From: a bacterium
GTDB lineage: Bacteria; UBA8248
Direction: 5' to 3'
DNA length: 64,000 nucleotides
Assembly: GCA_022828125.1 (NCBI GenBank)
Contig: JAJEJD010000012.1
Span: 118,501-182,500 of the forward strand
The position numbers and the translations under genes were made by a program. This document shows, piece after piece, positions 23,312-54,118 of the stretch. Within the stretch, counting starts at the first letter, position 1; each line of letters opens with the position of its first letter. A model generated the notes under the pieces. It was given only the letters and a program-made list of their open reading frames with translations, did no database searches and was not told where the DNA came from.

Positions 23312-23327
23312 ATATCAACAAGTCTCG

Positions 23328-24057: not shown

Positions 24058-24095
24058 AAGCTTACGGACTTATTGGTGCTAACCGAGAAAAGAGT

Positions 24096-24395: not shown

Positions 24396-24597
24396 ACCGG
24401 ACAATCATACCATGAATATCGATGAAATGGTCCTACAGCTTGACCCGCTAATTTGTCATGTTGAAAAACAATCTCGGCCACTATAAAGTTAGGCAAGTAT
24501 CCAAAATCTGCAGCTTTACAAATATGGCGGGTGGTGCTAGGCAATCATTCGCTTATTTATTTGGAATCTACACACCTTTACTTGGAAGCTTTGTCCC

Positions 24598-26556: not shown

Positions 26557-26578
26557 TCCGCGTTCGGAGGTAGATGGA

Positions 26579-27592: not shown

Positions 27593-27607
27593 GGGAGATT
27601 CAACATC

Positions 27608-38679: not shown

Positions 38680-38796
38680 ACAGGAATTACCCTCAAATCT
38701 TGTGTATGGGCTGAATTGAAGAAGGCGGATTATGAGCGGAAGTTCCGCCTCGTATTTGATGAAGGAAAACCCGTCATGGAGGAAGTCGAGGAGTAG
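38680..38796 (+). pseudogene. Possible 3' fragment of an unknown gene
   Basis: A 38-codon frame ending VFDEGKPVMEEVEE and a TAG stop reads like a natural acidic C-terminus (AELKKADYERKFRLVFDEG) but has no start codon after the upstream TGA. The rest was probably lost to repeat insertion. The family is not recognised. Confidence 0.3.
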
Positions 38797-38927: not shown

Positions 38928-39006
38928 TTGACTTTGCAAAACGCCGAAGAATAAGATCGGTTTCATTATATGAGGTTGGGTTCTTCATCAAACCATTCGA
39001 AGGAGG
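38928..39006 (+). promoter_or_regulatory. Promoter and ribosome site of the RiPP precursor gene
   Basis: An AT-rich stretch carries TTGACT (38928-38933) and TAAGAT (38952-38957), 18 bases apart. AGGAGG at 39001-39006, 6 bases before the ATG, is a near-perfect ribosome site, consistent with high expression of the peptide. Confidence 0.6.
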
Positions 39007-39012: not shown

Positions 39013-39264
39013 ATGAGAAGCGGCGACGAAATGTTGAAACAGATTGTTGACAAGTCCGCCCTGGACGCAGATTTCAGGCAACAGCTGCTCGCAGACCCGA
39101 AGGCGACCATCAGTGAGGAACTGGGCATCACGATTCCCGATTCGATGAATGTCGTGGTCCATGAGAGCGACATGCAGACGGTGCATCTCGCGTTGCCGCC
39201 GGACCCGAACATCACCGAGGAGCAACTCGAAGCCGTCTCGGCGGGCCTTTGCTGCTGCTGGTAG
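39013..39264 (+). CDS. NHLP-family RiPP precursor peptide with a CCCW core
   Basis: An 83-residue precursor with a nitrile-hydratase-alpha-like leader (NHLP/TOMM propeptide): MLKQIVDKSALDADFRQQLL, DPKATISEELGITIPDSMNV, then VHLALPPDPNITEEQLEAVS. The end, AVSAG-LCCCW, gives a cleavage site of the Ala/Gly-Gly type followed by a five-residue core with three consecutive cysteines and a C-terminal tryptophan. Cysteines are the substrate of the YcaO cyclodehydratase encoded 1.2 kb away; the tryptophan may be the substrate of the halogenase. A strong promoter and ribosome site precede it and a terminator follows. It converges with the biosynthetic gene set. Confidence 0.92.
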   Translation: MRSGDEMLKQIVDKSALDADFRQQLLADPKATISEELGITIPDSMNVVVHESDMQTVHLALPPDPNITEEQLEAVSAGLCCCW

Positions 39265-39320
39265 ACCGGAAACACCTGTCGGCGCGCGGATGCCTCGAAT
39301 CCGCATGATGTAAAAGTCAA

Positions 39321-39353
39321 AAATCCCCCCGCTTTACTTCGACGGGGGGATTT
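39321..39353. terminator. Bidirectional terminator between the precursor and biosynthesis genes
   Basis: AAATCCCCCCG pairs with CGGGGGGATTT around an 11-base loop. It lies between the convergent precursor gene and the end of the minus-strand operon, and could serve both. Confidence 0.85.
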
Positions 39354-39384
39354 GTGCTTTATTTTGCCGGAGTGGTTCTCAAAT

Positions 39385-40497
39385 CTAGACCGCTCCGGAA
39401 AGCACCATGAACACATAGGCCTTGACTTGCCTGAGCCGATCTCCGGATATGACCAGCTTGATGTGGTGAATGCCCCGCAGCAGCAAGAATTGCCCGGATT
39501 TCGCGAAAAGCGTCGTCGGTTTACAAACCCAGCCGGCAAGCGCCTCGATCTTCTCCGGAACGACAAGGTCCTCATGGCGCAAGGCTTCCAGAAATGCGTC
39601 CCAATCGGTCAGGCCGTCGAGCCAATAACGTGAATCTTTCGTATATCTGTGTTTGACGATAAGCGTCAGGCCGAGCGCCGGACCGACACCCTCTTCGCGC
39701 ACGTCGATATTCAATCCGGTTCTGACGATATCCGCGCGTTCCCTGAAGCGTGAAATCACGGAATCGACGACCGACATATCACCCGGCCAACCCGTGTTTT
39801 CAAGATAGCGGCATACTTCCCCCTGCGATTTGAAGTCCATGATCGCCAGGCGGATCGTGCGTTCCCGGGACGGGAATACCCCGAACGAATCCAGGCGCGT
39901 GTCTTCGGGCTGCGCCAGGTAAACCCGTTCGGCGTTTTCCCGTTCAGCGGCTATCTTCTCCCAGCCGACGCAGGAAACGAGGGCGTCCACCACGATTCCG
40001 ACATCATTCTGGAGGCCTGCGCCACCGTATAACGTGCGCTCGTTGGGCCGCAGGAACATTCCGGGAAGCGAATCGTTACTGCCCGGCGCGGAATCGATGT
40101 CATACTCCAGCATCAGTTTACGCCCCACGATCTCCCGCAGGGGCGAGTTCGGTGCTTCCATTTCCCGGAACAGCCGCCCGACCGCTCTCGCGGTCTCATC
40201 CGTCCCGTCGGTCCGCGCCCGTTCTTCGAAAAAATCACCCGATCGGTTTCCGCTCGACAACGAGACGCCGAAATCCGCCACCGGCCGAGCGTCATGCAGG
40301 GGCAGCTCGAAACCGAACGGCTGGGCGCCCATGGTGATGGGAAGTTTCCCGGCGCGTTCGAGTATGCGCTCCCACCCCGGATCTCCGATCAGAACCGGCG
40401 AAATCCTGCCCCGAAAGTGCTCGAGCAATTCAGCCATCGTGACGCCTTCTTCGGCGAGACGGTCCTGGGTAAGCGTGATTGCTCCGTCGATATCCAT
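39385..40497 (-). CDS. Unknown 370-residue protein of the RiPP cluster
   Basis: No family is recognised. It has no signal peptide or membrane helix, and composition suggests a soluble alpha/beta protein. Noticeable segments are ISPVLIGDPGWERILERAGK and GMFLRPNERTLYGGAGLQND in the front and LDSFGVFPSRERTIRLAIMD in the middle. Nothing resembles a ThiF, dehydrogenase or methyltransferase motif. Its ATG is 9 bases after the YcaO stop, with TAAGGA as ribosome site, so it is almost certainly co-translated with the cyclodehydratase. A role in modifying or guiding the precursor is an inference from position only. Confidence 0.75.
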   Translation of the reverse strand: MDIDGAITLTQDRLAEEGVTMAELLEHFRGRISPVLIGDPGWERILERAGKLPITMGAQPFGFELPLHDARPVADFGVSLSSGNRSGDFFEERARTDGTDETARAVGRLFREMEAPNSPLREIVGRKLMLEYDIDSAPGSNDSLPGMFLRPNERTLYGGAGLQNDVGIVVDALVSCVGWEKIAAERENAERVYLAQPEDTRLDSFGVFPSRERTIRLAIMDFKSQGEVCRYLENTGWPGDMSVVDSVISRFRERADIVRTGLNIDVREEGVGPALGLTLIVKHRYTKDSRYWLDGLTDWDAFLEALRHEDLVVPEKIEALAGWVCKPTTLFAKSGQFLLLRGIHHIKLVISGDRLRQVKAYVFMVLSGAV

Positions 40498-40506
40498 GTT
40501 GGTTCC

Positions 40507-42825
40507 TTACGCGATCACGGGCGCAGGATTCAAATCGGCTTCGGCCAGGGGGTGTTCGCGGCGGCCCATTCTGAGGGGCACGTCGTACAGGCGCCCGGGC
40601 GCGAATCTCGCCCAGAAATGGCGCATGCCCGGCACGATGACCCGCGCAACCGGCATCCCGATGTCCGGCCGGGTCTGGTCCAGCACGAGGAACTCCATAC
40701 CCCTGGCTTCCACCAACGCACGGCAATGCTCCACGTCGTCGCGCGTGTCCGCCGATTCAATCACCGGATAATCCGAGCCTTGCCTGAGCGGCGCGTCCTC
40801 TACCGGCGCCAGCCAGGAACAATCGGCGATTCGAGCCGTCTTCCACCAACTGAGCGCCAGCGGATCGTCGATCATGGGCTTGCCGTCGCCCCCGCCGGGA
40901 CGCGGCAGCCAGGTAAGGCACTGGTTCAGCTCGCAAACCGCGCGCAGGGCCGCCAGCCGCGGGTCGGCATGGGCGCCGGCGCCGTAAATGATGTCCTCGG
41001 TGTCCGCGTCCGGTCTGCGCGATAGCGCGACGAACGAAGGGATCCCGATGTCGGAAGTAACGTCGAGCATCCACACTTCCCGCTCGCAGCGGGCGTAGTA
41101 ATCCGCGGCCGATGCGAGGAATTCGTCGTCAAAGCCGGAAAGATCGACCCCGGGCGCTCTCAGTCCGTTGTACCACCAGATGGCGAACGCATCGCGCTCG
41201 ACCAGTTCATAGAAGCCTTGCAGGATGGCCCCCTCCAGGGTGTTCCCCGCGGCGCAGCCGTTGGAGTCGGCAATCAGATCGGCGCCTCCGCGCCCTTCGG
41301 GAGACATGCTGTAGAGCATCGACGTCGGCAGATAGCGATGCCGCCGCTGCGTGAACGACCAGACCGGGGTCCAGTCGATTTCGGCGTCGGGGTCGAGACG
41401 CGGCGGGACGATGTTGTACGGGTGGCCTTTCGCGTTGATGCTTTCCGCGTTGTCGAGCTGATAATCGCTGAACAGCTGCGCATCGTTGGGATGGATCGCC
41501 GCCTCTTCCGCGGCGAAGTCGTCGAACCGCCTGCGGATGCGGATCTCGTCTCCGCACCGGGCGCCCGAATGACGCTCGATCGCCTCGCAGAGAGCGCTGG
41601 CCTCGGATTGTTCCCGCGTGCTGCCCTTGCCTGCACTCTTGCTGCGCAAACTGCGCCTGAGCGAACTCAGGCTCCGGCTCCTCGCCCCGGGGTTGCTCCC
41701 GGCCCAATAGACGTGCAGCCAGGAGTCGTTCTCATCGGTCGTGCGCGCGAGCCAGGTTACGACTCCGCTGACCGGGCTCACCAGATGGCGGTATTTCGCC
41801 AGGGTCGCTTCGGGCGTCACGGCCCGCGCGCCGCCGCTGTTGCGGTGGGTCTTGGGACTCGCTTTCAGACAAAGCGCCGCCGGAGGCCGGTCCGGCAGAT
41901 AGAGCGCCTCGTCGCCGCAGGCGGGGCATTGCGGGCGGCGCGTCACCGGATGCCTGGAACTTTCGAACGCCCCGAGGTTCATCGCTATCGCGTGGTCGTG
42001 AATCGGGGCCGCCTCATCCAGCACCAGCCACTTGGCGACCTCCGCCGCGATCAGCCCGTACAGCGACTCCAGCACCCCGGACTCGGCGGCGAACGGCTTG
42101 AAGGCGGCTTCCTCACCGGCGAAGCTGCGCAGGAAATTGTGGACCTCCTTATGGCAGCGCAGGCGGCAAGCCAGGCACTCCCAGCAGGGTCCTTTTTTAT
42201 CCGCGCGAAAGACGGAGCCGAAAAGCGCCTCCATGCCGCGCGGGCGCACCAGCGTCCACGGCGCTCCCGCCTCGAGCGCGCGCCGGTTCACTTCTGCAAG
42301 CCGTTTGTCGAGATAATCCTCGCAGACGATAACGGTGAGCCTGGGGTCGCCGGCCGTCACCCCGATGCCGACCTCTTCCAAATGCCGGACGAGGCGGCCG
42401 TCGTCGCCATCGACCGCGACCCGTGATTCCGCCAGCCGCCCTTCGACCCAGCGGGGCGATGCGCCGAGCGACGACCAGTAGGCCGCCCGGGGCCGGTCCA
42501 TGCCGTGATCGGCGGAGACGACATAGCCCCTGGCGGAGAGCGAAACAATCGCCGCGTGAACGTCGGCGGCGGGGTGGCGGCCTTCGAGGGCGGCGGCAAT
42601 CTCGGATAGCGGCTTCGAGCCGCCCAGAAGCGGCAGCAGATCGCCATACAGGCCGCCGTGGAGCAGCGTATCGAACGATTCGGAAACCAGCAGCGTCTGC
42701 CGCTCGTCGATTTCGTGGAACTGCAGGTGCGGGGTGAGCGATGGAAGCTCGACGAGGCCCTCGTCCGCAGGCGTCGTATTCGTCAATATCCCGCGCCTGG
42801 GATTCCTTTTCGTCTGGGTTGGCAT
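40507..42825 (-). CDS. Fused ThiF-like/YcaO TOMM cyclodehydratase
   Basis: A 772-residue fusion. Residues about 1-320 form the Ocin-ThiF-like leader-binding part, with a zinc tetrad from C214/C217 (GPCWECLAC) and C300/C303 (PQCPACGD). Residues about 385-772 form the YcaO domain: GKGSTREQSEASALCEAIER (399-418), NGCAAGNTLEGAILQGFYEL with ERDAF, and CELNQ (631-635), the ATP/Mg-binding glutamates of azoline-forming YcaO enzymes. The C-terminus NPAPVIA is a degenerate PxPxP tail. It would cyclise core cysteines to thiazolines using ATP. No separate flavin dehydrogenase (McbC-like) gene is seen, so oxidation to thiazoles is unexplained. The AlkB-GlnE gene lies 33 bases upstream. Confidence 0.93.
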   Translation of the reverse strand: MPTQTKRNPRRGILTNTTPADEGLVELPSLTPHLQFHEIDERQTLLVSESFDTLLHGGLYGDLLPLLGGSKPLSEIAAALEGRHPAADVHAAIVSLSARGYVVSADHGMDRPRAAYWSSLGASPRWVEGRLAESRVAVDGDDGRLVRHLEEVGIGVTAGDPRLTVIVCEDYLDKRLAEVNRRALEAGAPWTLVRPRGMEALFGSVFRADKKGPCWECLACRLRCHKEVHNFLRSFAGEEAAFKPFAAESGVLESLYGLIAAEVAKWLVLDEAAPIHDHAIAMNLGAFESSRHPVTRRPQCPACGDEALYLPDRPPAALCLKASPKTHRNSGGARAVTPEATLAKYRHLVSPVSGVVTWLARTTDENDSWLHVYWAGSNPGARSRSLSSLRRSLRSKSAGKGSTREQSEASALCEAIERHSGARCGDEIRIRRRFDDFAAEEAAIHPNDAQLFSDYQLDNAESINAKGHPYNIVPPRLDPDAEIDWTPVWSFTQRRHRYLPTSMLYSMSPEGRGGADLIADSNGCAAGNTLEGAILQGFYELVERDAFAIWWYNGLRAPGVDLSGFDDEFLASAADYYARCEREVWMLDVTSDIGIPSFVALSRRPDADTEDIIYGAGAHADPRLAALRAVCELNQCLTWLPRPGGGDGKPMIDDPLALSWWKTARIADCSWLAPVEDAPLRQGSDYPVIESADTRDDVEHCRALVEARGMEFLVLDQTRPDIGMPVARVIVPGMRHFWARFAPGRLYDVPLRMGRREHPLAEADLNPAPVIA

Positions 42826-42858
42826 CCGGCGATCCTGCGTCTGCTCGGGCGGCGCGTT

Positions 42859-45255
42859 TTATGTGCGCGAAACAAGCGTATCGATCCGGGCGGCGGCGCC
42901 GGATGCGGTTTCGGTGACCGCCGACGCCAGCGCATCGAAATCCTCCTGCCCGCAAGCGTTCGCAATCAGGGATTTGACCTTCGTCCCCCCCGCCGCCGCG
43001 TCGAACCCTTCCTCGCCGACGAGGCGCATGACGCCCTGCAAATCCCGCCACATGACCGCGGCTTGCGCCAGCGGTTCGGCGCCGGCCATATCGAACACCG
43101 CCGCAGCGCTCGGCGCCGGGTCGTCGAGGAAGCTTCCGCCGCGCTCCAACTGCAGGTAGCGCGCGGCCTTCTCGACGTCGTCCAGCCCGCCGCGCATCCG
43201 GGCGTATGCGGACACGTTTTTTTCGGCGCCCTCTTCCGTCCACTCGCTCAACCAGTCGGGCAAAGACCTGTTCGCGCCGTATTCGGTCAGTATCCGGCGC
43301 CGCGCCTCCTCGAAGCGGTCTGCGATATCGGAACCTTCATACTCGAAGGCGCAGCGTGCCCTGGTGAGGGCGGGAATCTCGCCTGAAGCCGAATTTCCGA
43401 AACGCCCGGCCAGTTCGGAAAGCGTCAACGCAGGTATGGAATTCGAGCCGTGCGGGACCGGGGAGAACAACAGGCTGTCCTGCGACAGGTCGCTCAGCGA
43501 CTTTCGGAAACTCCCGAACATGCGTTCATTTTCGCCGGACTGGCGGCCGTCGTGGAGGATCAGCATCTCGATTCCAACGCCGGGGTATGCTTCCCGGCTG
43601 GCCAGATCGCCCAGGAAAACGGCGGCGACGCCGCCCACGCTCAGCGTCCCGAAGCGGTCGACGTAATCCGCCACCACGGAGGCGAGCACGGTCGAAATCG
43701 ATGCTTCGGCGAGATTCGAGAGCGCCGTACTCGCTTCCGCCGGCAAGAGGTTTCCGCGCATCACGTGCATGCCGATCTGAAACGCCTTGTCGTTCGACCA
43801 GTTCCGCACGATTTCAGCGGTTTCCCTCGCGTCGGCCACCGGCAGTTCGGCGACCAGACCCTTCAATTCCTGAACGTCCATTTCGTACGTCCAGTAGACT
43901 CTCGCCAGCCCGCGCCGCGCAATCGATTCGTATTCCGCATCCGGCCCGAATCCTTTCGGCAGGTCGAGATCGAGGAATTCCTGGTCCTGCAGGTTGTCCA
44001 GAAGTTCCGGATTCCGCTCAATCCATTTCGCGAGCCGAGGGGCGGCGCCGAAGATTTCGAGTATCGCGTCGAAGGCGTCGGGCCGCGCCGCGGCAATCGG
44101 GCTGTCGTAGGGGCTCCAGTCCTCGATATCCGGATAGAAATGCTCCCGCCACTGGTCCACCAGCGGGTCCATCTTCTCGAACCAGCGCTTGGGCCGCAGC
44201 ACGATGTTCATCATGTCGGCGTAGGTTCCCGGCAGTTCCGGCGACTCGTCGAGGCCGCTGACCTGCAGCAGCGGGTACTGGCGCGACGCCACCGCGTGAT
44301 GGTCCGCATGGCGCTGCATGTTGAAAAACATCCAGTTGCTGAACTTCCAGTCGGCGCTCCAGGAATGGCGCGGCATCGCCTTCTCCCAGCGGCCGTTGTC
44401 CAGACGGACCCGGCGCAGGCCGTAGTGCTGGAAGTAGTTGCTCATCTTCATCGAAAAGACGCAGGACAGGCCGAGGAAGATGAAGACCGGAACGGCCCAG
44501 ATCCCGCCCAGCCAGTACACCAGCGCGTACCAGAACGCGACGCCGATGCCGTAGCGCCAGAACGGATTCTCGTAATGCCAGACGGGCAGACGGCGCCGCG
44601 TCAGGCGTTCTCCCGCGACTTCCCAGGAATGCACGAGGTTGCTGACGACTTCCTTGGGGAAATATTTCCAGAAACTCTCCCCCTTCGGGGCGGAGCCCAC
44701 GTCGTACGGCGTGCCGACCAGGGCATGGTGGATATAGACGTGTTCCGTCGCGTACTGCGGATAGGAGACGGAGGCGAGCAGGAATTCGCCCACCCGGCGC
44801 TCCCAGGTCGTGCGCCGGTGTATCATTTCGTGACCGACGACGAACACGGCTTGCGCCTCCATCGTCAGGATTACCGCCAGGAGCACGCCTTCCCACCACG
44901 AGAATTGATCCGCCGCCAGGATTTGCCACATACCGAAAATGAGCGTCGGCGGCCACAGAAACGACCACGACCAGACCGGCAGGTTGTGCCAGAACAGGCG
45001 GTGTTCCGGCGTATTCGACGGATCCATGTTCTGTCCGTCGCGGCCCAGCGCCCGGTCGAGCCACCCGGCCAGACTCATGAAGACGAGCGGCGGCAACAGC
45101 CACCAGCCGCCATGGAGCGCGCCGAGAAGAATCAGCGGAAAAACGACCAGCGGCAGATAATGCGGAACAGCGTTCAGGATGGACGGCTCGACAGGTTGAG
45201 CGGCGCCGGCGTTGCCCGGGTCGGAGCCGCCACTTACAACCGGACTTTGTGGCAT
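42859..45255 (-). CDS. AlkB-type di-iron membrane hydroxylase fused to a degenerate GlnE-like domain
   Basis: A 798-residue fusion. Residues about 30-385 match alkane 1-monooxygenase: membrane helices and four histidine motifs, GHEMIH (142-146), EHVYIHH (171-177), NYFQHYG (273-279) and MQRHADHH (313-320), as needed for a di-iron site. From about 395 the sequence switches to the glutamine synthetase adenylyltransferase (GlnE) fold: AILEIFGAAPRLAKWIERNP, a polymerase-like core near 537-569, IPALTRARCAFEYEG (627-641) and GGLDDVEKAARYLQL (689-703). The catalytic SDxDL aspartates are replaced (VGIEM, 560-564), so nucleotidyl transfer is probably lost. It may hydroxylate or desaturate the precursor; the GlnE-like part may bind the peptide. 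The start has GAGGAG upstream. Confidence 0.85.
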   Translation of the reverse strand: MPQSPVVSGGSDPGNAGAAQPVEPSILNAVPHYLPLVVFPLILLGALHGGWWLLPPLVFMSLAGWLDRALGRDGQNMDPSNTPEHRLFWHNLPVWSWSFLWPPTLIFGMWQILAADQFSWWEGVLLAVILTMEAQAVFVVGHEMIHRRTTWERRVGEFLLASVSYPQYATEHVYIHHALVGTPYDVGSAPKGESFWKYFPKEVVSNLVHSWEVAGERLTRRRLPVWHYENPFWRYGIGVAFWYALVYWLGGIWAVPVFIFLGLSCVFSMKMSNYFQHYGLRRVRLDNGRWEKAMPRHSWSADWKFSNWMFFNMQRHADHHAVASRQYPLLQVSGLDESPELPGTYADMMNIVLRPKRWFEKMDPLVDQWREHFYPDIEDWSPYDSPIAAARPDAFDAILEIFGAAPRLAKWIERNPELLDNLQDQEFLDLDLPKGFGPDAEYESIARRGLARVYWTYEMDVQELKGLVAELPVADARETAEIVRNWSNDKAFQIGMHVMRGNLLPAEASTALSNLAEASISTVLASVVADYVDRFGTLSVGGVAAVFLGDLASREAYPGVGIEMLILHDGRQSGENERMFGSFRKSLSDLSQDSLLFSPVPHGSNSIPALTLSELAGRFGNSASGEIPALTRARCAFEYEGSDIADRFEEARRRILTEYGANRSLPDWLSEWTEEGAEKNVSAYARMRGGLDDVEKAARYLQLERGGSFLDDPAPSAAAVFDMAGAEPLAQAAVMWRDLQGVMRLVGEEGFDAAAGGTKVKSLIANACGQEDFDALASAVTETASGAAARIDTLVSRT

Positions 45256-45336
45256 GTCAGCTCCTCAATGGTAGACATTTTGAGTCCCTTGGACCGGAAG
45301 ATATTTTATCCCCGAAGACCTTGACCTGCAAGTTTT

Positions 45337-46638
45337 TCAGGCCTGCAAGATTTCGAGGAGACGCTCGAGAGCTTCGATGCAAAACGCCGTGGTCACGGAT
45401 TCGGAGCCATGTCCTATCCGCCCGACCGCGCCCCACTTCAGCGTCTGGTCGCCGAACGCGAGGAGTTCCGGCCAGCTGCCGTCCTCATGCTGCGAACCCG
45501 TGAACATTTCCACGAGGCGTTTCGCGTCGATGCCGTCGAGGCGCCCCGCGTGGTGGAGCGCCGAGACGGCCTGCGCCGTTTGGAGGACGTTGCCGAAACC
45601 TCCCTCATCGTCCCGTAAACCCAGGATGCGCTCCGCCAGTACCGGGCGCAGGCGCTCGAGAGCGGGCCGTGCGCGAACCATGGCGCGGGCGGCCGCGTAG
45701 CAGACGGCGATTTCGTCGGGATACCATTTGGAGGAGCCCGCGAGATCGCCTTCGCTCATCAAGGCTTCCAGCCATCGCCGGGCGTCCCTGGTTTCAGGGT
45801 GGTCGCCGAGATAGGCGATGACGTTCGCATTGACCACGGGGTCGGCCTCGATGCGAAAGGGCGACACGACGTCGGGTTCGTCGTCTTCGAGAACCCAGGT
45901 CATGAAGCGGCCTTCCTCGTCGCGGTTCGCCAATATTTGCGGGACGTTCCTCCCCAGCAATATCCAGGGATGAGTATCGAGCACGAGTGAACACAGCGCG
46001 GTACTGTCGAGATCCCGGGGCAGATGGCGGTAATAGCGCCACAATCCGGGATATTCGACCGTGTCGACGAGATACGCCCTGGTCGCGGCGCAGATGGCTC
46101 TGGCGCGCGCTTCCCCGCAGCATTCCAGCGCAAGGACGCAGAAAGCCGATACGAAAGGAGGCCTTTCGAAATGCCGCGGTATATCCGGATCGGCCACGTT
46201 GAACCGGATGCAGTGCCAGGCGCCGTTTTCGTCTATCGTGGATTCGAGGAAATCGAGACCGCGGCGGATGGCTTCCCTGCCCGCTATTGCAAGCGCCTCG
46301 GCGGTGGCGGCGGCCTTCGGGACTATCTCCCCCTGAACGACGGGCGGACGGAGGGGCGGCGCGGGGTCGTGCATGGTCCTGCGAAGGAAATCGAGCGATG
46401 CCGCGCCGGTTCTCGCCTCCTCGCGTTCCGCCTCGGTGAATTTGCTGCGCGGCGGAAGAACGAGGTGCGTCGCGGCATAGGTGTCTTCGTGCACGTGAAT
46501 CTCGTGGCCTTCGGCCATCTTCACGCCGAATTCCGCTTCGATGGTCTCTTTGGGCCTGGCGAGAAGACGCTCCCTGAAGTCGCAGTCCTCGCCGGCCCGC
46601 GATATCAGGGAATCGGCTGCGTCAAAGGGCTTCCTCAT
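45337..46638 (-). CDS. NHLP leader domain fused to a squalene-cyclase-like toroid
   Basis: A 433-residue protein. Residues about 7-75 are homologous to the leader of the precursor at 39013: CDFRERLLARPKETIEAEFG, EIHVHEDTYAATHLVLPPRS and KFTEAEREEA align directly. The remainder is an alpha/alpha barrel of the prenyltransferase/squalene oxidase-repeat class: AIRRGLDFLESTIDENGAWH, RDDEGGFGNVLQTAQAVSAL and TGSQHEDGSWPELLAFGDQT (QW-like) followed by VTTAFCIEALERL. A clean DxDD motif is not visible, so cyclase chemistry is uncertain. It may be a leader-guided modification enzyme or a leader decoy. Gaps to the neighbours are about 80 bases on either side. Confidence 0.85.
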   Translation of the reverse strand: MRKPFDAADSLISRAGEDCDFRERLLARPKETIEAEFGVKMAEGHEIHVHEDTYAATHLVLPPRSKFTEAEREEARTGAASLDFLRRTMHDPAPPLRPPVVQGEIVPKAAATAEALAIAGREAIRRGLDFLESTIDENGAWHCIRFNVADPDIPRHFERPPFVSAFCVLALECCGEARARAICAATRAYLVDTVEYPGLWRYYRHLPRDLDSTALCSLVLDTHPWILLGRNVPQILANRDEEGRFMTWVLEDDEPDVVSPFRIEADPVVNANVIAYLGDHPETRDARRWLEALMSEGDLAGSSKWYPDEIAVCYAAARAMVRARPALERLRPVLAERILGLRDDEGGFGNVLQTAQAVSALHHAGRLDGIDAKRLVEMFTGSQHEDGSWPELLAFGDQTLKWGAVGRIGHGSESVTTAFCIEALERLLEILQA

Positions 46639-46713
46639 GGACCTCTACTCCATTTTCGCAGGCCCTGGCCGAACGCGCATTTGCGCCGTCAGGTAGTTAT
46701 TTGCGTATCCGGA

Positions 46714-49650
46714 TCAAGCGATTTGCCTTTTGATCAATTCCTTGAATACCCCGTCGACTTCCTTGAGTTCATCGAAGGAACCGCTTTGCACGACTTTTCC
46801 GGCTTGCAGCACGTAGATGCGGTCGGCCTGTTCCAGCGTGGACAGCCGGTGGGCAATGACGAGGCGGGTGGAAGTCAGGGCGGCGAGATTCTGCATTACC
46901 TTGGCCTGGCTCTCGTTATCCAGCCAGTTGGTCGCCTCGTCAAACAACATGATTCGAGGACTGCCGATTATCGAGCGGGCGATCGTGATGCGCTGGCTCT
47001 CGCCGCCTGACAGGACGGACCCGCTGGCACCCACCATGGTCATCATGCCCATGGGCATGTCCTTGATTTGGGCTTCGACTTCGGCGGTCCGGGCCGCATC
47101 CCATACTTCCTCGGTCGCCATTTCGTCATGGTGAGAGACCAGATTATCCCAGAGATCTTGCGGATGGAGTCCGACGGATTGAGGCACCGCGCCGATTTTC
47201 CGGCGCACCTGTTTCAGATTCAGGTGCCTTAGGTCGCGTCCGTCGTAATACACCGCGCCGGCGGTCGGCCAGTCGATACCGAGCGCGAGCCGGAACAGGG
47301 TGCTCTTGCCGGCGCCGGACTCACCGGCAATCGCGACGAATTCGCCGGGACGGGCGTGAATCGTGACGTCGTCGAGAATCAGCGGACCGTCGGGATCGTA
47401 GCGGAAGGAAATGCGGTCGAACAGTATTTCGCCGCCCAGGTATTCCACCGGCTCTCCTTCCGTCACGGTTTCAGGAACGGCGGAGAGCAGTGGGCGCATC
47501 TGCTCGAACGCCGGCCGCATGGCGGCAATGGCGCCGAAGGACTCGCCGAGCCGGGCGATGGCGGACTGAAAAACGATAAAGACCGTGTAAACGACGAGAA
47601 AATCGCCGACCGGAATGTTTCGCTCACCCGCCACCGCGAAAAGTAGCACCCCGCCGGCAAGAAAGGGAAGCGCGGCGCCGAATGCCCGCGAATGTCCCTC
47701 GAGCGCGCCCAGTTCGATCTCCGCGCGTTTCTGCTCACGATAATCCCTCGCCCAGATGGCGTAAGCCGACCCTTCCGCATTATCCATTCGCAGCTTGGAG
47801 ATGCCTCCCACGAGCTGGAAGAGCCGGCCGGCTACGCGGCGCGCTGCGCTGATCATCCGCCCGTAAGGGGAAATCTGGCGCAACCCGAGGGCTACGGCGA
47901 CCAGCAGCGAAGCCAGGCTGAAGACGAGGGTGATGAGGCCGAGCGTGGCATCGTAGAAAAAGATGACGCCAAAAACCGGAAGCAGGAAAATGATCGACAA
48001 AAAGCTGTTGGCGACGACTCCGCGCAAGCCGTCGCGAAGGTTCTGGAACGTCATCCCCGACATGGCCAGATCACCGGCGGGATGGCGGTGCAGAATGCTT
48101 GGCGGAAGGCGCATGAGACGGTCCCAGAAAGCGGCTTCGACCCGGGAAGCCGAGCGCCCCTCGAGCCGCATCATCGCCGTGCTCTGAAACAGGTGCAGCA
48201 GCGCGCCGAGCAGGCCGAACGCCGCTACCGCCACGGCAACGGCATAGATCGCTCCTGCGCTTCCGCCCACCGATATTTCATTCGCAACGAATCCGAGCGC
48301 CAGCGCCGGCAGCAGTTTGATCAAGCCGTATGGAAGCCCGGCAATGACCAGCCGCGCCAGGTCCGCGGCCGATCCGCGCAGGGCGATTTCCATCAGGTCC
48401 GCCAGTTTCACGCCCTCCGGCGGCAATGGCCGATAGAACATCCAGGCTTCCTCCGCCAGCTCGCCCGCGCGGTCCGCCGTTACCCGGAGGCTGCGTTTGC
48501 TGACCGGGTCGATTTCCCTGTATCGCCCGAACCTTCCCGGCAGCAGCGCCACGGGCCGGCCGTCCTCCGTGCGGAACGCCAGCATCGCGTTGCTGTCGCC
48601 GCGCCACCAGCTGCCCTCGGCTTTGAATCGCACGCGCCGGGCGCGTATGCCTGACGCGTCGAGAATATCGACGAGACCGACCGGAGTATTGGAGGGTCCC
48701 GAGCGCGCCGGTATCTTGAAATCGATTCCTTCATGGCGGCCGATGAGTTGCAGGGCCTCCGCCAGCGCCGTGTCCTCGACACCGGCGTCCCGGTCAACCG
48801 GAAGGTCATAGATATTGAAGAGCCGCTGCCGCGCTGCTTTTTCGGCCGTACGGCGGCTGGCAGTCCGCGCGCGCTCGAGATTGACGTCGTCGACCACGAC
48901 CAGTCGGCGGTTCAGGCGTTCCAGGGAGAAAGCAACCGCGTGAAAAGAGGCGAGCGCCGGCAGCAGCATGCCCTGTTCCGCCAGGCTTTCGGTAGATATG
49001 CCCGTCAGCGTCGCCTCGTCGAACAAGGCGAGCCAGCTTGTCCGCGTCAGCGGAATAACGGCTTCGTGCGGGCCGCTCGCTTCCGCCAGTTCCGCCGGGT
49101 CGACAATACCCATGAACAGGCTCGCGCCGCGCGGCGGTTTGGATACCCACACCACGCCGCGCCGTACGGATAGCGTACAAGGGGCCAGGGCCTGCGCCCG
49201 ACCGGGTTCGGCCAGCGCCGTCGGACGCGGAAGGGGGTTTGCAAAACGCGACAGCGTTTCGGTAATGGCGATCAGCCAGGTGTCGGTCTGTTCCGCCAGT
49301 TCCGCCGGATGAACCCGGGACAGCAGGGAAGCCGGCAGACGCTTCAAAATGGTGCCCGGCAGTCCTTTGGCAACGATGCTGAGCGTATTGTCTTCGTCAC
49401 CCTCTCGCTGGTCCGGCGCCATACCCGGCAGCAACCAGCCCGATTCCCGGCGCAGCAGATGCTGCGGCGCCGCCTGCTCCACCCCGTCCTTGAGTTCGAC
49501 GAGGAACAGATTGACGGCGCCCTGATCGATGAACCAGACACTATCCGGGTCGTCGAGCTTGACCGGCAGGTTGCCGGCGCAGGGCACGGACTCGCCGAAG
49601 CGAGCGGCGAGTTCGGCTATGGACGTGAATTCCGGCCTTGTATTCTGCAT
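46714..49650 (-). CDS. NHLM-type bacteriocin ABC transporter, ATP-binding protein (long form)
   Basis: A 978-residue exporter half of the kind found in NHLP clusters (NHLM ABC2). The first 400 residues form a soluble N-terminal region (cyclic-nucleotide-binding-like start WFIDQGAVNLFLVELKDG). Next is a six-helix ABC membrane domain (about 430-720), then the nucleotide-binding domain with Walker A GESGAGKSTLFRLALG, signature LSGGESQRITIARSI and Walker B IMLFDEATNWLDN. It probably pairs with the peptidase-containing transporter to secrete the modified peptide. Its ATG overlaps the stop of the upstream gene (TGATG). Confidence 0.93.
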   Translation of the reverse strand: MQNTRPEFTSIAELAARFGESVPCAGNLPVKLDDPDSVWFIDQGAVNLFLVELKDGVEQAAPQHLLRRESGWLLPGMAPDQREGDEDNTLSIVAKGLPGTILKRLPASLLSRVHPAELAEQTDTWLIAITETLSRFANPLPRPTALAEPGRAQALAPCTLSVRRGVVWVSKPPRGASLFMGIVDPAELAEASGPHEAVIPLTRTSWLALFDEATLTGISTESLAEQGMLLPALASFHAVAFSLERLNRRLVVVDDVNLERARTASRRTAEKAARQRLFNIYDLPVDRDAGVEDTALAEALQLIGRHEGIDFKIPARSGPSNTPVGLVDILDASGIRARRVRFKAEGSWWRGDSNAMLAFRTEDGRPVALLPGRFGRYREIDPVSKRSLRVTADRAGELAEEAWMFYRPLPPEGVKLADLMEIALRGSAADLARLVIAGLPYGLIKLLPALALGFVANEISVGGSAGAIYAVAVAVAAFGLLGALLHLFQSTAMMRLEGRSASRVEAAFWDRLMRLPPSILHRHPAGDLAMSGMTFQNLRDGLRGVVANSFLSIIFLLPVFGVIFFYDATLGLITLVFSLASLLVAVALGLRQISPYGRMISAARRVAGRLFQLVGGISKLRMDNAEGSAYAIWARDYREQKRAEIELGALEGHSRAFGAALPFLAGGVLLFAVAGERNIPVGDFLVVYTVFIVFQSAIARLGESFGAIAAMRPAFEQMRPLLSAVPETVTEGEPVEYLGGEILFDRISFRYDPDGPLILDDVTIHARPGEFVAIAGESGAGKSTLFRLALGIDWPTAGAVYYDGRDLRHLNLKQVRRKIGAVPQSVGLHPQDLWDNLVSHHDEMATEEVWDAARTAEVEAQIKDMPMGMMTMVGASGSVLSGGESQRITIARSIIGSPRIMLFDEATNWLDNESQAKVMQNLAALTSTRLVIAHRLSTLEQADRIYVLQAGKVVQSGSFDELKEVDGVFKELIKRQIA

Positions 49651-51860
49651 CAGCCCGACTGCACCAGCTTGTAGTACGCGCCATCCCGATCCGCGATCAA
49701 ATCGTCGTGCGCGCCGCGTTGCACGGTGACGCCTTTGTCGAGCACGATGATTTCATCGCAATCCCGCACGGTGCTCAGCCGGTGCGCCACGATCAGGCAG
49801 GTGACGCCGCGACGCCGCAGGGCGTCATCGACGTATTCCTCTGTCGCGGCATCGAGCGCGCTGGTGGCCTCGTCCAGGATGAGCACCGTCGGATTGCCCA
49901 CCAGTGCGCGGGCGATTTCCAGGCGTTGCTGCTGGCCGCCGCTGAAATTCGCCCCGCCTTCTTCGACGAGGGTCGCATATCCCTGCGCTCGAAGCAGGAT
50001 TTCGTCATGGATTTGGGCGTCCCGCGTCGCGGCGAAGAGGATTTCATCCGGAACGGCCGGGTTCCACAACGTGATGTTGTCGCGCAGGGACGCGGTAAAG
50101 AGCACGATCTCCTGATCCACCATGGATATGGACTGCCGCAGCACTTCTTCCGGAATCTGATCCCGCGGATGACCGTCAAACAGGATTTCGCCCGACCAGG
50201 GCTGGTAGACGCCCGAAACCAGACGCGCCAGGGTCGACTTGCCGGAACCGCTGGGACCGACCACGGCGACGCGCTGCCCCGGTTTGATCACGAGGTTGAA
50301 GTCCTTTATCAAAGGGGGCCGGCTCTTGTTGAAACCGAAGGTGAGGTCTCGCAGTTCGAGTTGGCCCGCGAGTTGGAGCCGGCCGTTGAACGTGCGGATA
50401 GACTCCGATTCCGGGCTCCGGCGGCTGAAAACGGGATCTTCATCGGTTTTAGAGATGTCCTCGAGACGCTGCAAATCGGTTTCGAGCGCCTGACGGGTTT
50501 CGGCAAACTCCAAAAAGCGCCTGACGGGAGCCAGGAACATCTCCGCCAGGATGTAGAACCCGACCAGCGTCCCCAGGGTCATGTTCCCGGCCATGACCAT
50601 GCCGCCCCCGACGCCGAGAATCGCCGCGCTGCGCAGCGCGTCGACCAGCCCCGGAAGCGAGGTATTGACGGAGCCCAGTTCGGAATAGAGTTGGCGCGCA
50701 CGCAACTCACGCGCCTGTTGACCGCTCCAGCGCGAAAAGAACCGGTCGTCCGCTCCCGTCATGCGCAGGTTGTCCGCATGACTCAACATCTGCATGCCGA
50801 GGCCGATCAGCAATCCCTGCTCGCGCCTCATCGCCTGGCTCCGGACCGCCCGGAGGGCGTTGAGGAAGTGGGCCAACGCTCCGTGCAGAAGGGCCAGCAG
50901 AAGCACGATCAGCGTGAGCAGGACATCGTAGGCGAACATCGCGACGAGCAGCACCACGCTCATTCCCATGTCGATAATCAGGACAAGGAACTGATCCGCC
51001 AGATTCCTGGCGATTCTGTCGGTGGATGAGACCCGGTCGGTCAGGTCGCCGGCCAGCCTGTGTTCAAAAAACTCCACCGGCAGCCGCAGCAGCCGTGACA
51101 TGCCGCGACTGAAGCCAATCACCGATACCCGGACGGCGAGCCGCTTGAGGAATCGGTGCTTGAGCAAGGACAGGACGTATACCAGGACGCCGCCGCCAAG
51201 CAAGGCGGCCACCAATCCGCCCCAGGACCCGTGTTTTTCCATAACATCGTCGACGAAAACACCGAGGGATACGGGAATCATCAACGTCAACAGCGTCAGC
51301 ATGAGTCCGCAGGAAATCACCCCGGTAAGCACATTCCATGATCCGGAGAGCAAGGCGCCCAATTGCCTGAACAAATCGGGCTGTTCGCCTCCGGGCCTGA
51401 AATCGGCGCCGCACTTGAAGCGGAGCGCAATTCCACTGTAGCCCTTGTTGAACTCTTCAGCGGAAACCCTGCGCCGCCCCGTGGAAGGATCGTTGAGATA
51501 GAAATAGCGTCCATCGAATCCTTCGAGGACAAGGAAATGGCTGAATTGCCAGAACAGGATCAAAGGCAATCGCAGCTTTTTCAGTTGATCGGCGCGTACG
51601 CTGAGCCCACTGCATTCGAGACCATAGTGCCTGGAGGCGCGCAATATGCTCGCGGCGCTGCTGCCGTCTCGGCTCACCTCGCATTTTTCGCGCAATTCGG
51701 TAAGCGGCACCCATCGTCCGAAGTAGGCCAGTACGATGCCGAGACAGGCGGCGCCGCATTCCGACGCATGCATCTGCAACAGAACCGGCGTGGTCACCCT
51801 TCGCTTCATTATGTCCGGAAAGGCATCATCCCCGGCCCCTTTGGGGTCGTGAGGCGGCAT
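49650..51860 (-). CDS. NHLM-type ABC exporter with C39 leader peptidase
   Basis: A 736-residue peptidase-containing ABC transporter. The N-terminal C39 domain (about 18-150) has catalytic Cys in HASECGAACLGIVLAYFG, His in FSHFLVLEGFDG and Asp in YLNDPSTGRR, so it can cut after a double-glycine-type motif such as AVSAG in the precursor. Next is a six-helix exporter domain. The nucleotide-binding domain has GPSGSGKSTLARLVSG, signature FSGGQQQRLEIARAL and ILDEATSALD. It is co-translated with the second ABC gene (stop/start overlap) and follows the HlyD-like gene after one base, forming the export unit. Confidence 0.94.
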   Translation of the reverse strand: MPPHDPKGAGDDAFPDIMKRRVTTPVLLQMHASECGAACLGIVLAYFGRWVPLTELREKCEVSRDGSSAASILRASRHYGLECSGLSVRADQLKKLRLPLILFWQFSHFLVLEGFDGRYFYLNDPSTGRRRVSAEEFNKGYSGIALRFKCGADFRPGGEQPDLFRQLGALLSGSWNVLTGVISCGLMLTLLTLMIPVSLGVFVDDVMEKHGSWGGLVAALLGGGVLVYVLSLLKHRFLKRLAVRVSVIGFSRGMSRLLRLPVEFFEHRLAGDLTDRVSSTDRIARNLADQFLVLIIDMGMSVVLLVAMFAYDVLLTLIVLLLALLHGALAHFLNALRAVRSQAMRREQGLLIGLGMQMLSHADNLRMTGADDRFFSRWSGQQARELRARQLYSELGSVNTSLPGLVDALRSAAILGVGGGMVMAGNMTLGTLVGFYILAEMFLAPVRRFLEFAETRQALETDLQRLEDISKTDEDPVFSRRSPESESIRTFNGRLQLAGQLELRDLTFGFNKSRPPLIKDFNLVIKPGQRVAVVGPSGSGKSTLARLVSGVYQPWSGEILFDGHPRDQIPEEVLRQSISMVDQEIVLFTASLRDNITLWNPAVPDEILFAATRDAQIHDEILLRAQGYATLVEEGGANFSGGQQQRLEIARALVGNPTVLILDEATSALDAATEEYVDDALRRRGVTCLIVAHRLSTVRDCDEIIVLDKGVTVQRGAHDDLIADRDGAYYKLVQSG

Positions 51861-51861
51861 C

Positions 51862-52413
51862 TTATGATCGCCTCATACGAAAAAGCGCGATCGGAGATTG
51901 CCTGCCGAGCTCGATGACTATCCGACATTTCCTGCCCGCAAGGGAACCCGAATCCAGACTTTCCTCGAGCGCGATATCGACGCGGTACACGGACACCGGC
52001 GCCGCGGACTCAAATGCCGCCGGCCCCCCGGAAAAGGGCACGGCGGAAATTGCCCTGATCTCTCCGCCAAGTGTGACTGTTTCTCCATCCGCCGCATCCG
52101 GCTCAACCATCACCGGCATCCCGGTTTCGAGATGTGGAGCGATGTCGCTCTCGACCCAGACGAGGGCCTGCACGGAGCGTCTGCCATCGGGCAAGTTTTC
52201 GCCTTGCTCGACCAGTACGCCGTCTACCACAAGATTACGGGCTACGTTGCCGAAGAAAAACCATGCCGAGAGAATGCACAGCAATAGCGCAATTGCGGCG
52301 ACAAGCAGGCGCTCCCGCGGCGTGGAAACTGTCAGTAGCCGGTCGAGTTGTTCGCGTTCTTCCTTCGCTTCGGCAACCGTTTTATGAAATGAGTCGAACG
52401 GATTGTTGAACAC
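51862..52413 (-). CDS. Short HlyD-like secretion adaptor (NHLM type)
   Basis: A 183-residue protein with a cytoplasmic N-terminus, one membrane helix (about 35-55, RLLVAAIALLLCILSAWFFF) and a beta-rich periplasmic part (VEPDAADGETVTLGGEIRAI... YRVDIALEES). This matches the barrel-sandwich/beta-barrel portion of membrane-fusion proteins of NHLM systems, but the alpha-helical hairpin that would reach an outer-membrane channel is missing. It is therefore shorter than usual and may suit release to the periplasm only. The first gene of the export operon; GTG start. The stop is one base before the peptidase-transporter start. Confidence 0.75.
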   Translation of the reverse strand: MFNNPFDSFHKTVAEAKEEREQLDRLLTVSTPRERLLVAAIALLLCILSAWFFFGNVARNLVVDGVLVEQGENLPDGRRSVQALVWVESDIAPHLETGMPVMVEPDAADGETVTLGGEIRAISAVPFSGGPAAFESAAPVSVYRVDIALEESLDSGSLAGRKCRIVIELGRQSPIALFRMRRS

Positions 52414-52810
52414 GACGGTAGAGTAGCCTCTTCAATGAAGGTGAAAAATCTCATTCCATTTCAATATATTATATGAAATCATACACAATTTGGATCAAGA
52501 AATATCACGGCTTGGGAGTAGCGGATTGCCGTTGCACGGAACAGATCGTTATCCTCCGGGATGAGTTGCTCCAGAGAATTGGCCGCGAACGATTCCGGTT
52601 GCTCGCGCCGCCTACGCCCCTACATCTCTGGAGACCCCCCCTCGCAGGTGCTGAATATCATTATACGAAACCACAGGGCGGGGACTTTTTCAACGGCCCT
52701 GGATGGACGCCCTGCAGCAGACAGACGATTTTCTCCGTCTTGCAGCCCCCCTCGTCATACCCGGCATTCCTCTTTTCCAAACCCGGTGGGAGCAATCCGG
52801 TGGCGTAGAA
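52414..52810. other. Promoter region and solo element end between the halogenase and export genes
   Basis: A gap of about 400 bases. On the minus strand, TTGATC (52493-52498) and TATAAT (52468-52473) lie 19 bases apart in an AT-rich stretch and may drive the export genes. A solo repeat end GGGACTTTTTCAACGGCCC is at 52681-52699. No gene is seen. Confidence 0.5.
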
Positions 52811-54118
52811 TCAACCGATATTGAAGTTTCCCAGGACCGGCGCCTGGCAGCCCAGCCCCTGGGAAATCTGGGCAAAACTGGTGAGGGGAAGCGCGCACAT
52901 CCGGTCCCAGTCCGTTTTGTCGATGACCGTCTGGTTCATCAGTTCGAGCATTTCGTCGAATTTACGAAGCGCGTCGCAATCCACCACTTCGGGGTCCGCC
53001 GCCTCACGGTGTAGAGGCCAGGCGTTGTCTCTGGCATGGCGCCAGAATCTGCTGTCGTACCTGGAACCACAGGAATAGTGCCAACCGACGAACAGGCCGT
53101 AGCAAAGCATGTTGTTGATGAGAAACCGGTTGACCACCGGCGCGTCACGCTCGAGATGCTCTTCCGAACGGTTCAGACGCATATGGAGAACCATCCCGAT
53201 CTGCAGTTGGGCGGATACGATCGCCGTTGCTTCAAGCGGCTCAATGAAGCTTGCCGCGTTGCCGATGCGGGCCACCGCGCCGTCGTAAATCCGGCGATGG
53301 ATGAAATTGGGAAACTGAATGACGGCGCGCTGCTCGAATTCCGGTACGCCGTCGCTTTCGAGAAAAACGTCAAAGTCCGATTCCACTTCGGCAAGGCCGG
53401 ATACGTCGCGGTTAAAGATGTACCCGTAGGAAGTATGTAACGTAAGCGGAATCACGAATATCCAACCGTGCGGACGCGCAACCGCCCGGGTATAAGTATG
53501 CTGTAATACCAGCCCGTCCCGATCTTCTTCGACGATAGCCGGACAGCGGCGGATGATGGCTGTATTTGTAGGGATGAAAGAGAGGTCGATGTGCCGTTCG
53601 GGATCGAGTTCTCGGGGGAACCCGCGGGCATCGAAGACCAGGTCGTAGCGCTCCGGCGGCAGGCCTTCGAATTCCACCTGCGCGCCGCCTTCCACCCTGG
53701 TGATATCGAGAACTTTCGCGTCGATACGGCGCGCGCGCGTGCTTTCGCGCAGCAGGTTCGTCAGGACGTCTGCGGACAGGTGGTAGGCGTAGGACACTTG
53801 CTGCGGTGTGAAATAGTGGGTGAAGCCCTGATTGCGCCGGCCCCATCCCTCGAATGCAACACCGTACTTGCGGGTTCCTCTCAGGCGCTGCTGGATGGTT
53901 TCATGGGGGAGATTCGTCAGTTCCTGCAAATGCTGAACCAGGCTCGGCCAGCTGCCCTCACCCACTCCGACGACGGGGATGCGCGAGTCGTATATGTGGT
54001 GCAACTCGTGGTCGCCGTCCGGGTGAAGACGGGTTACATTCGCGGCCGCAAGGGAGCCTGCGGTTCCCTGCCCGACAACCGCGATCTTCCGCAAAGATTT
54101 ACTGCCCGGCTGTATCAT
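52811..54118 (-). CDS. Tryptophan-halogenase-like flavin-dependent protein
   Basis: A 435-residue FAD-binding protein of the PrnA/RebH-like group. It has GQGTAGSLAAA (FAD site, 16-26), VGEGSWPSL (52-60), and RKYGVAFEGW with Lys84 at the place of the chloramine-forming lysine. The WxWxIP motif is changed to WIFVIP (219-224), and GNAASFIEPLEATAI matches the catalytic-Glu block. So halogenation is possible, although one signature tryptophan is replaced. It lies upstream of the RiPP export genes on the same strand with 397 bases between. The only tryptophan in the predicted core is its last residue. A FAD-dependent oxidation other than halogenation cannot be excluded. Confidence 0.82.
   Translation of the reverse strand: MIQPGSKSLRKIAVVGQGTAGSLAAANVTRLHPDGDHELHHIYDSRIPVVGVGEGSWPSLVQHLQELTNLPHETIQQRLRGTRKYGVAFEGWGRRNQGFTHYFTPQQVSYAYHLSADVLTNLLRESTRARRIDAKVLDITRVEGGAQVEFEGLPPERYDLVFDARGFPRELDPERHIDLSFIPTNTAIIRRCPAIVEEDRDGLVLQHTYTRAVARPHGWIFVIPLTLHTSYGYIFNRDVSGLAEVESDFDVFLESDGVPEFEQRAVIQFPNFIHRRIYDGAVARIGNAASFIEPLEATAIVSAQLQIGMVLHMRLNRSEEHLERDAPVVNRFLINNMLCYGLFVGWHYSCGSRYDSRFWRHARDNAWPLHREAADPEVVDCDALRKFDEMLELMNQTVIDKTDWDRMCALPLTSFAQISQGLGCQAPVLGNFNIG

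What the first reader, a model, noticed from the sequence alone, without database searches (positions are those of the whole stretch)
39013..54118. A candidate new class of NHLP/TOMM RiPP cluster with hydroxylase, halogenase and leader-fused toroid
Seen: an NHLP precursor with a tiny CCCW core, a fused ThiF-YcaO cyclodehydratase, an AlkB-type hydroxylase fused to a GlnE-like domain, an NHLP leader fused to a squalene-cyclase-like toroid, a halogenase-like flavoprotein, an unknown 370-residue protein and complete NHLM export genes. Known: YcaO plus NHLP leader plus NHLM exporters define azole peptide clusters. Inferred: the product is a very short azole peptide with further oxidation or halogenation. 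I know of no described cluster with this enzyme set.
Basis: partly seen in the sequence, partly recalled or inferred. Interest (0 to 1): 0.95.

Follow-up and report, generated by a model that had tools for sequence, protein, structure and literature searches.

The report
Sponge-symbiont brominated peptide-terpenoid gene cluster
This gene set matches a peptide-making cluster already published from marine-sponge microbiomes (srp), and it encodes a five-residue peptide, LCCCW, that is likely turned into a brominated ring-bearing compound; two of its puzzling proteins, a prenyltransferase-like one and a terpene-cyclase-like one, are predicted to attach and fold a terpene chain, which would make the product a peptide-terpenoid hybrid.

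Summary
In detail: the genes named are all there. The claim of an undescribed cluster does not. This is the published srp proteusin cluster: same LCCCW core, same leader motif at residues 66-72, fused YcaO, and a Trp halogenase with SrpI's catalytic Lys84 and loop 105-109. Print reports thiazolines and Trp-6 bromination on this core. Of 80 related loci, 60 hold a closed precursor gene, and 56 of those encode GLCCCW.

Against pure Trp prenylation: clusters whose core lacks Trp keep the prenyltransferase-like gene. I saw no assay of these three proteins; the founding 2021 paper was not held.

The parts
39013..39264 (+). Precursor peptide (SrpE ortholog): 78-residue NHLP leader ending SAG, core LCCCW
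   Evidence: TIGR03793 E 1.4e-19; NITEEQL at residues 66-72 (sequence), as NLTEEQL 66-72 in SrpE (PMC10858898 passages); GLCCCW in 56 of 60 related loci with a closed precursor ORF
39385..40497 (-). 370-aa protein, predicted aromatic-prenyltransferase (PT-barrel) fold; called U370 here
40507..42825 (-). Fused cyclodehydratase (SrpC ortholog): RRE-like winged helix, ThiF-like TIGR03882, YcaO
   Evidence: E414, E417, E540 and E543 invariant in 68 of 68 rows
42859..45255 (-). AlkB-type membrane di-iron oxygenase (residues 1 to about 380) fused to a GlnE adenylyltransferase-like domain that has lost its DxD
   Evidence: 8f6t alkane 1-monooxygenase E 9e-46; nine motif histidines invariant in 72 of 72; GlnE of genome G098 SDLDL versus VGIEM here
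45337..46638 (-). NHLP leader (residues 1 to about 80) fused to a class II terpene-cyclase-type toroid (residues 105-433)
46714..49650 (-). NHLM-type ABC transporter 2 (permease/ATPase)
   Evidence: TIGR03797 E 1.3e-198
49650..51860 (-). NHLM-type ABC transporter 1 with C39 leader peptidase
   Evidence: TIGR03796 E 5.3e-257, over cut-off; Peptidase_C39 1.4e-32
51862..52413 (-). Short HlyD-like membrane-fusion protein, 183 aa (GTG start)
   Evidence: TIGR03794 E 4.7e-6 over model positions 6-56; found in related loci beside ABC1
52811..54118 (-). Flavin-dependent peptidyl Trp halogenase (SrpI ortholog)
   Evidence: PF04820 E 5.8e-42; Lys84 in 29 of 29 rows and P105-Q-Q-V-S109 as in SrpI (PMC10858898 passages); PDB matches 9luq and 5uao, the latter MibH, at E 3e-24

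Best explanation
The genes at 39013-54118 are a member of the published srp proteusin cluster, and they likely make a brominated tri-thiazoline LCCCW peptide that is predicted to be prenylated by the 370-residue protein, likely oxidised by the AlkB-type enzyme and predicted to be cyclised by the leader-fused terpene-cyclase domain. Steps: (1) the leader of SrpE binds the YcaO fusion and three Cys become thiazolines (reported in print for srp, with a partly modified mixture from SrpC in E. coli; not tested here). (2) The halogenase brominates indole C6 of the C-terminal Trp (reported in print for SrpI). (3) The 370-aa PT-barrel protein transfers a prenyl group, in LCCCW most likely to the Trp (inferred from fold, conservation and kin clusters). 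(4) The AlkB-type enzyme oxidises the prenyl chain, for example to an epoxide or alcohol; its GlnE-derived domain would be a docking part (inferred). (5) The toroid protonates the chain or opens its epoxide and cyclises it, its fused leader keeping it in the complex (inferred). (6) The C39 ABC transporter cuts after SAG and exports the product, in some hosts with an added MMPL/LolA-like/DUF1302-type lipid route (inferred). The order of steps 2-5 is unknown. My odds: srp membership 0.97; some prenylation of the peptide 0.55; terpenoid cyclisation 0.45; Trp as the prenyl acceptor 0.35.
Against: Clusters whose core has no Trp (LCCCGI, LSCCM/L/V, LCCCL, RCCCCA) keep the 370-aa gene and AlkB-GlnE, and all but LCCCL show YcaO in the stretch read, while toroid and SrpI ortholog are missing from those stretches and, for the two genomes searched whole, from the genome: if the 370-aa protein prenylates Trp in LCCCW, it must use another acceptor there, or it never uses Trp. 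The Trp/toroid/SrpI association is one event on the tree, since the rows labelled LCCCW form one clade. The 370-aa protein matches no prenyltransferase by sequence, its catalytic residues could not be aligned with known ones, and the structural superposition is loose (rmsd mostly 4-5 A). The toroid has D-x-D-S, not the full DxDD of squalene-hopene cyclase (motif recalled). No prenyl-diphosphate synthase was recognised among the cluster and flank genes scanned; the host pool would have to supply the donor. The window's own cluster shows no MMPL/LolA set among the nine flank genes scanned, and 48 of 80 loci show no MMPL, many of them cut short by the contig or locus end.
Confidence: 0.45

Rival explanations
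1. srp product without a terpenoid: the peptide is only cyclodehydrated, brominated and hydroxylated by the AlkB-type enzyme on the peptide itself; the 370-aa protein and the toroid use old folds as peptide- or leader-binding scaffolds.
For: Activities in the texts read stop at thiazolines and bromine. The toroid carries a leader without a core, a scaffold-like design, and the GlnE part, with its DxD mostly lost, shows that the cluster re-uses an enzyme fold in what is probably a non-catalytic way. No sequence link of the 370-aa protein to prenyltransferases.
Against: Strict conservation of the toroid acid motif (51 of 51) and of charged residues in the 370-aa family looks catalytic; two terpenoid-type folds, and lipid-type exporters in some relatives, would be a coincidence.
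Confidence: 0.3
2. Prenylation happens, but not on Trp: the 370-aa protein and AlkB-GlnE act on the Cys-rich part or on a terminus of the peptide in all variants, and toroid plus brominase go with a C-terminal Trp, the toroid using the indole as cyclisation partner.
For: Two genomes whose only core of this type lacks Trp (G121 LCCCGI, G123 LSCCL) have the 370-aa gene and AlkB-GlnE but no toroid hit and no SrpI ortholog, against toroid in 17 of 18 and SrpI ortholog in 10 of 10 LCCCW genomes searched.
Against: One phylogenetic event; more distant kin of the 370-aa gene go with cores ending in Trp or Tyr, two of them in G121 itself; PalQ shows Trp prenylation on an NHLP peptide.
Confidence: 0.2
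3. A metallophore: the tri-thiazoline peptide binds a metal and is taken up again through the adjacent TonB receptor.
For: Consecutive thiazolines and a TonB receptor at 54583-57117.
Against: The TonB receptor is not conserved: one 25% hit in 80 loci.
Confidence: 0.05

Closest known systems
srp proteusin clusters of marine-sponge microbiomes (SrpE/SrpC/SrpI; J Am Chem Soc 2021, 143:10221, not held; PMC10286304, PMC10858898)
   Same: Core LCCCW, NHLP leader with the LxxxxL-type motif at 66-72, YcaO enzyme, Trp halogenase with Lys84 and loop 105-109
   Different: No difference found in the texts I saw. PMC10858898 has no occurrence of AlkB, toroid, squalene or desaturase; the founding paper may name these genes.
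mpr proteusin cluster (MprE/MprC/MprD)
   Same: NHLP leader and YcaO azoline formation (PMC12455567, first of three parts read)
   Different: Has the azoline oxidase MprD and ten precursors; no such oxidase among the cluster genes scanned here
PalX/PalQ of Paenibacillus (PMC10853753, passages)
   Same: NHLP peptide with C-terminal Trp that is prenylated with C5, C10 or C15
   Different: PalQ belongs to the isoprene-synthase superfamily, not the PT barrel; the cluster is three genes (kinase, precursor, prenyltransferase)
PT-barrel aromatic prenyltransferases (FunA, CymD, DMATS family)
   Different: No detectable sequence similarity; catalytic residues not aligned
Class II terpene cyclases: drimenol synthase AsDMS, meroterpenoid cyclase MstE, squalene-hopene cyclase
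   Same: Toroid fold and D-x-D-S/T motif; significant profile match to drimenol synthase (E 1e-6)
   Different: Single toroid domain fused to a RiPP leader; DLDS instead of DxDD (the latter recalled)
MibH, Trp chlorinase of NAI-107
   Same: Peptide Trp halogenase (5uao E 3.4e-24)
   Different: MibH acts after leader removal and chlorinates (PMC10286304)

Membership tests
srp proteusin cluster | NHLP precursor with core LCCCW | tested here: met
   39013-39264; core as in PMC10858898 and PMC10286304
srp proteusin cluster | SrpI-type halogenase with catalytic Lys84 and leader-contact loop 105-109 (PQQVS) | tested here: met
   Lys84 and P105-Q106-Q107-V108-S109 by residue number
srp proteusin cluster | YcaO cyclodehydratase in the same cluster as the precursor | tested here: met
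   YcaO within 3 kb of AlkB-GlnE in 70 of 70 testable loci
srp proteusin cluster | Origin in a marine-sponge microbiome | tested here: inconclusive
   Three of the four nearest relatives are titled Nitrospinota or Nitrospinae MAGs (L013-L015; L012 only 'bacterium'); record titles do not name the host
srp proteusin cluster | Overall sequence identity to published SrpI, SrpC and SrpE | not testable with these tools
   Founding paper not held; full sequences of these proteins not seen
PT-barrel aromatic prenyltransferase | PT-barrel (ABBA) fold | tested here: met
   Predicted model only:
PT-barrel aromatic prenyltransferase | Match to a curated prenyltransferase sequence family | tested here: not met
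   No prenyltransferase family among the Pfam or NCBIfam matches of 54 members; no PDB sequence hit up to E 10. So: predicted to work like one, not filed as a member
PT-barrel aromatic prenyltransferase | Prenyl transfer activity | not testable with these tools
   Needs an enzyme assay
Class II terpene cyclase | Alpha-alpha toroid of the cyclase type | tested here: met
Class II terpene cyclase | Asp-rich catalytic acid motif | tested here: met
   D209-L210-D211-S212 invariant in 51 of 51, aligned with the AsDMS motif; shorter than the DxDD of squalene-hopene cyclase (recalled)
AlkB alkane monooxygenase | Histidine motif set of the di-iron site | tested here: met
   Nine histidines in four motifs invariant in 72 of 72; 8f6t E 9e-46
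GlnE adenylyltransferase | Catalytic DxD (SDLDL) | tested here: not met
   VGIEM in the window; first Asp in 2 of 72 rows, second as Asp in 35 and Glu in 21; SDLDL in the G098 GlnE, but a second GlnE-like ORF (G113) also lacks it

The most novel reading that the evidence does not exclude
srp is the first ribosomal meroterpenoid pathway: a PT-barrel peptide prenyltransferase from a family invisible to sequence searches, an AlkB-type oxygenase and a leader-tethered class II terpene cyclase build and fold a terpene chain on a brominated tri-thiazoline pentapeptide, and this one product has been passed between at least four bacterial phyla almost without change in its core.
Probability: 0.4. Interest if true: 0.9.

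Novelty: new variant of a known kind. Interest (0 to 1): 0.62.

Why it matters
The srp cluster is widespread, and I saw no report of its isolated natural product in the texts I could read. If its two unnamed enzymes build a terpene chain, a search for the plain brominated peptide looks for the wrong mass, and exact masses to look for can now be given. It would also join two great natural-product classes, ribosomal peptides and terpenoids, by leader-guided terpene cyclisation, and would point to a family of peptide prenyltransferases (1063 homologues at E 0.001 or better among the 7995 candidates scored) that the sequence searches made here did not recognise.

Tried and rejected
Metallophore reading from the TonB receptor: dropped, not conserved. 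Catalytic adenylylation by the GlnE part: held unlikely, DxD mostly lost; of the two GlnE-like comparison ORFs one (G098) keeps SDLDL, the other (G113, a 1544-aa frame) does not. A new cluster class: dropped, srp published. Sequence evidence for the prenyltransferase fold: none found with Pfam, NCBIfam or PDB up to E 10. Scan at the precursor: one promoter-like site at 38928-38957 (0.5 expected by shuffling) and one terminator-like site upstream at 38736-38748 (1.3 expected); not used. The Trp/toroid/SrpI association was first taken as strong covariation, then marked down after the tree showed a single event. Four of the 63 rows labelled LCCCW in that tree (L020, L032, L038, L054) have no closed precursor in the locus and were labelled by default. 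One LCCCW genome, G122, has no toroid hit; in L083, its locus, AlkB-GlnE is cut by the contig start. Of the recurrent ORF families I gave seven to Pfam: three were named (MMPL, LolA-like, and DUF1302 only weakly, E 0.0073), four had no family and some of these may be antisense frames. Conservation counts use orthologs that passed a filter of 85% length and no stop: AlkB-GlnE 71 of 85 loci with a hit, YcaO 67 of 80, 370-aa 65 of 67, toroid 61 of 64, halogenase 28 of 38, plus the window in each.

Literature (search listings unless stated): searches. The terms proteusin, prenyltransferase and terpene cyclase together: 0 papers. The 14 papers and the 7 listed were seen as titles and abstract starts only; none of the titles is about a terpene cyclase acting on a ribosomal peptide. 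PalQ was the nearest. PMC12715784 was seen as abstract start and two reference passages. The founding 2021 paper was not held under DOI or PMC id, so I cannot say whether it names these genes; what I say of it beyond what the later papers cite is recalled.
Full report
Observation. The precursor at 39013-39264 is an NHLP peptide (TIGR03793 E 1.4e-19) ending SAG-LCCCW. It faces a minus-strand run of a halogenase-family flavoprotein, a short HlyD-like protein, the two NHLM ABC transporters, the leader-fused toroid, AlkB-GlnE, the YcaO fusion and a 370-aa protein without a family. The TonB receptor upstream is a neighbour, not a part.

It is the srp cluster. Published SrpE has the core LCCCW, whose three Cys are made into thiazolines by the YcaO enzyme SrpC (a partly modified mixture in E. 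coli; fully modified with the related MprC/MprD on a chimera) and whose C-terminal Trp is brominated at C6 by SrpI (PMC10286304, first of three parts read). SrpI uses Lys84, is modelled to contact the leader with a loop at residues 105-110 (P105, Q106, Q107, V108, S109 named), and needs the motif NLTEEQL at SrpE 66-72 (PMC10858898, passages). The window's halogenase has Lys84 and P105-Q-Q-V-S109 at the same numbers, Lys84 in 29 of 29 rows, and the precursor reads NITEEQL at 66-72 (sequence). PMC9426513 (passages and one section) also reports srp-like clusters in two of three sponge species. The founding paper was not held.

Distribution. A scan with the AlkB-GlnE protein gave 81 relatives, of which the best 80 loci are kept, with titles naming Nitrospinota, Alpha- and Gammaproteobacteria, Acidobacteria or Bryobacterales, Candidatus Binatia and 'Deltaproteobacteria': four phyla without counting the last. 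Single homologues in the protein database are named Gemmatimonadetes (toroid) and Nitrospira (toroid). Of 60 loci with a closed precursor ORF, 56 encode GLCCCW; four loci hold a precursor with MCCCGI (in addition to LCCCW in L056, L059 and L060), and four (L078, L079, L085, L091) have only other Trp-less cores. A tree of the 370-aa protein mixes phyla, for example Vicinamibacteria with Binatia and an Alpha- with a Gammaproteobacterium at 100/100, so the cluster moves between lineages. In the window's genus the AlkB-GlnE gene is in 5 of the 6 other genomes searched (in G004 only a piece at a contig end), and in none of the 54 more distant genomes searched.

Kin clusters. The window's genome has a second copy of this family beside another NHLP precursor (G000:C30). 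The copy is in 7 of 7 genomes of the genus, and its precursor keeps AWNSLNQNS in all 7. Other genomes have distant copies on contigs that also carry, within about 8 kb, NHLM transporters and NHLP precursors with cores ending DIDTW (2), GGDSW (2), DDSY and SSSY. Two of these contigs hold a leaderless toroid next to the 370-aa kin (L140, L144) and two a halogenase (L142, L143), with a weak halogenase hit on a third, G121:C98. Aromatic side chains are the usual acceptors of this enzyme fold (established knowledge).

AlkB-GlnE. The oxygenase part matches a solved alkane monooxygenase at E 9e-46 and keeps nine histidines in four motifs in 72 of 72 rows. The GlnE part is 31% identical to the GlnE of genome G098, which has SDLDL where the window has VGIEM. 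The first Asp is present in 2 of 72 rows, the second as Asp in 35 and Glu in 21, so it is probably not an active adenylyltransferase. A second comparison ORF, from G113, also lacks the motif, so loss of it is not confined to the fusion.

Lipid-type export genes. An MMPL transporter with a sterol-sensing-type match occurs in 32 of 80 loci; in 19 of the 21 loci where it precedes the HlyD-like gene the gap is under 400 bp. A LolA-like gene occurs in 22, usually just after the precursor, and a DUF1302-type gene (weak match, E 0.0073) in 20; 13 loci have all three. This fits a greasy product. The nine flank genes scanned in the window include none of them.

A result against the simple model. Two genomes whose only core of this type lacks Trp (G121 LCCCGI, G123 LSCCL) have AlkB-GlnE and the 370-aa gene but no toroid hit and no SrpI ortholog (best halogenase E 2.5e-7 and 8.7e-14). 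The second clusters of G105 (LCCCL) and G106 (RCCCCA) also keep AlkB-GlnE and the 370-aa gene without toroid or halogenase in the stretch read, while the LCCCW cluster on the same contig has both. Among LCCCW genomes the toroid is found in 17 of 18 searched and a SrpI ortholog of 64% or more in 10 of 10. So toroid and brominase go with Trp, while the 370-aa protein and AlkB-GlnE do not need it. The rows labelled LCCCW form one clade (100/99), so this is one event. Either the 370-aa protein changes acceptor, or its acceptor is not Trp.

Conclusion. Shown here: membership in srp by its distinctive residues, the predicted folds, the intact motifs, the conserved gene set. Reported in print for srp: thiazolines and 6-bromo-Trp. 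Inferred: prenylation, oxidation of the chain and its cyclisation. I find a ribosomal meroterpenoid the most economical reading of a cluster that keeps a PT-barrel protein, an alkane-type oxygenase and a terpene cyclase tied to a copy of the peptide's own leader, at about 0.45.

Noticed in passing
G000:C30:141224-142762 (L092 7988-9796): Second NHLP precursor with a core ending FANAWNSLNQNS beside a second copy of the 370-aa PT-barrel family; in all 7 genomes of the genus searched, with one in-frame stop in the G002 copy.
   Followed up: partly
L056 and L060 at 18284-18529, L059 at 18483-18728: A second precursor with core MCCCGI on the opposite strand to the LCCCW precursor.
   Followed up: partly
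L017:345-2687, L068:16283-17233, L057:17237-18466: MMPL transporter, LolA-like and (weakly) DUF1302-type genes flank many srp loci, suggesting lipid-type export.
   Followed up: yes
L197:10404-11483, L198:10059-10991, L200:7066-8082: A similar-looking protein of 310-359 aa without Pfam match near NHLM transporters in clusters with DSW, DSY and DTW cores.
   Followed up: partly
window 54583-57117: TonB-dependent receptor next to the halogenase, with one 25% hit in the 80 related loci.
   Followed up: yes
window 18000-28000: G+C falls to about 0.50-0.55 with strong AT skew at 20-22 kb, against about 0.63 around; a 1121-aa ORF at 18733-22098 lies there.
   Followed up: no
L056, L059-L061, L071, L078, L085, L091: AlkB-GlnE matches end near residue 647-664 of 798, so the C-terminal part of the GlnE domain is missing or very divergent in these loci.
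   Followed up: no
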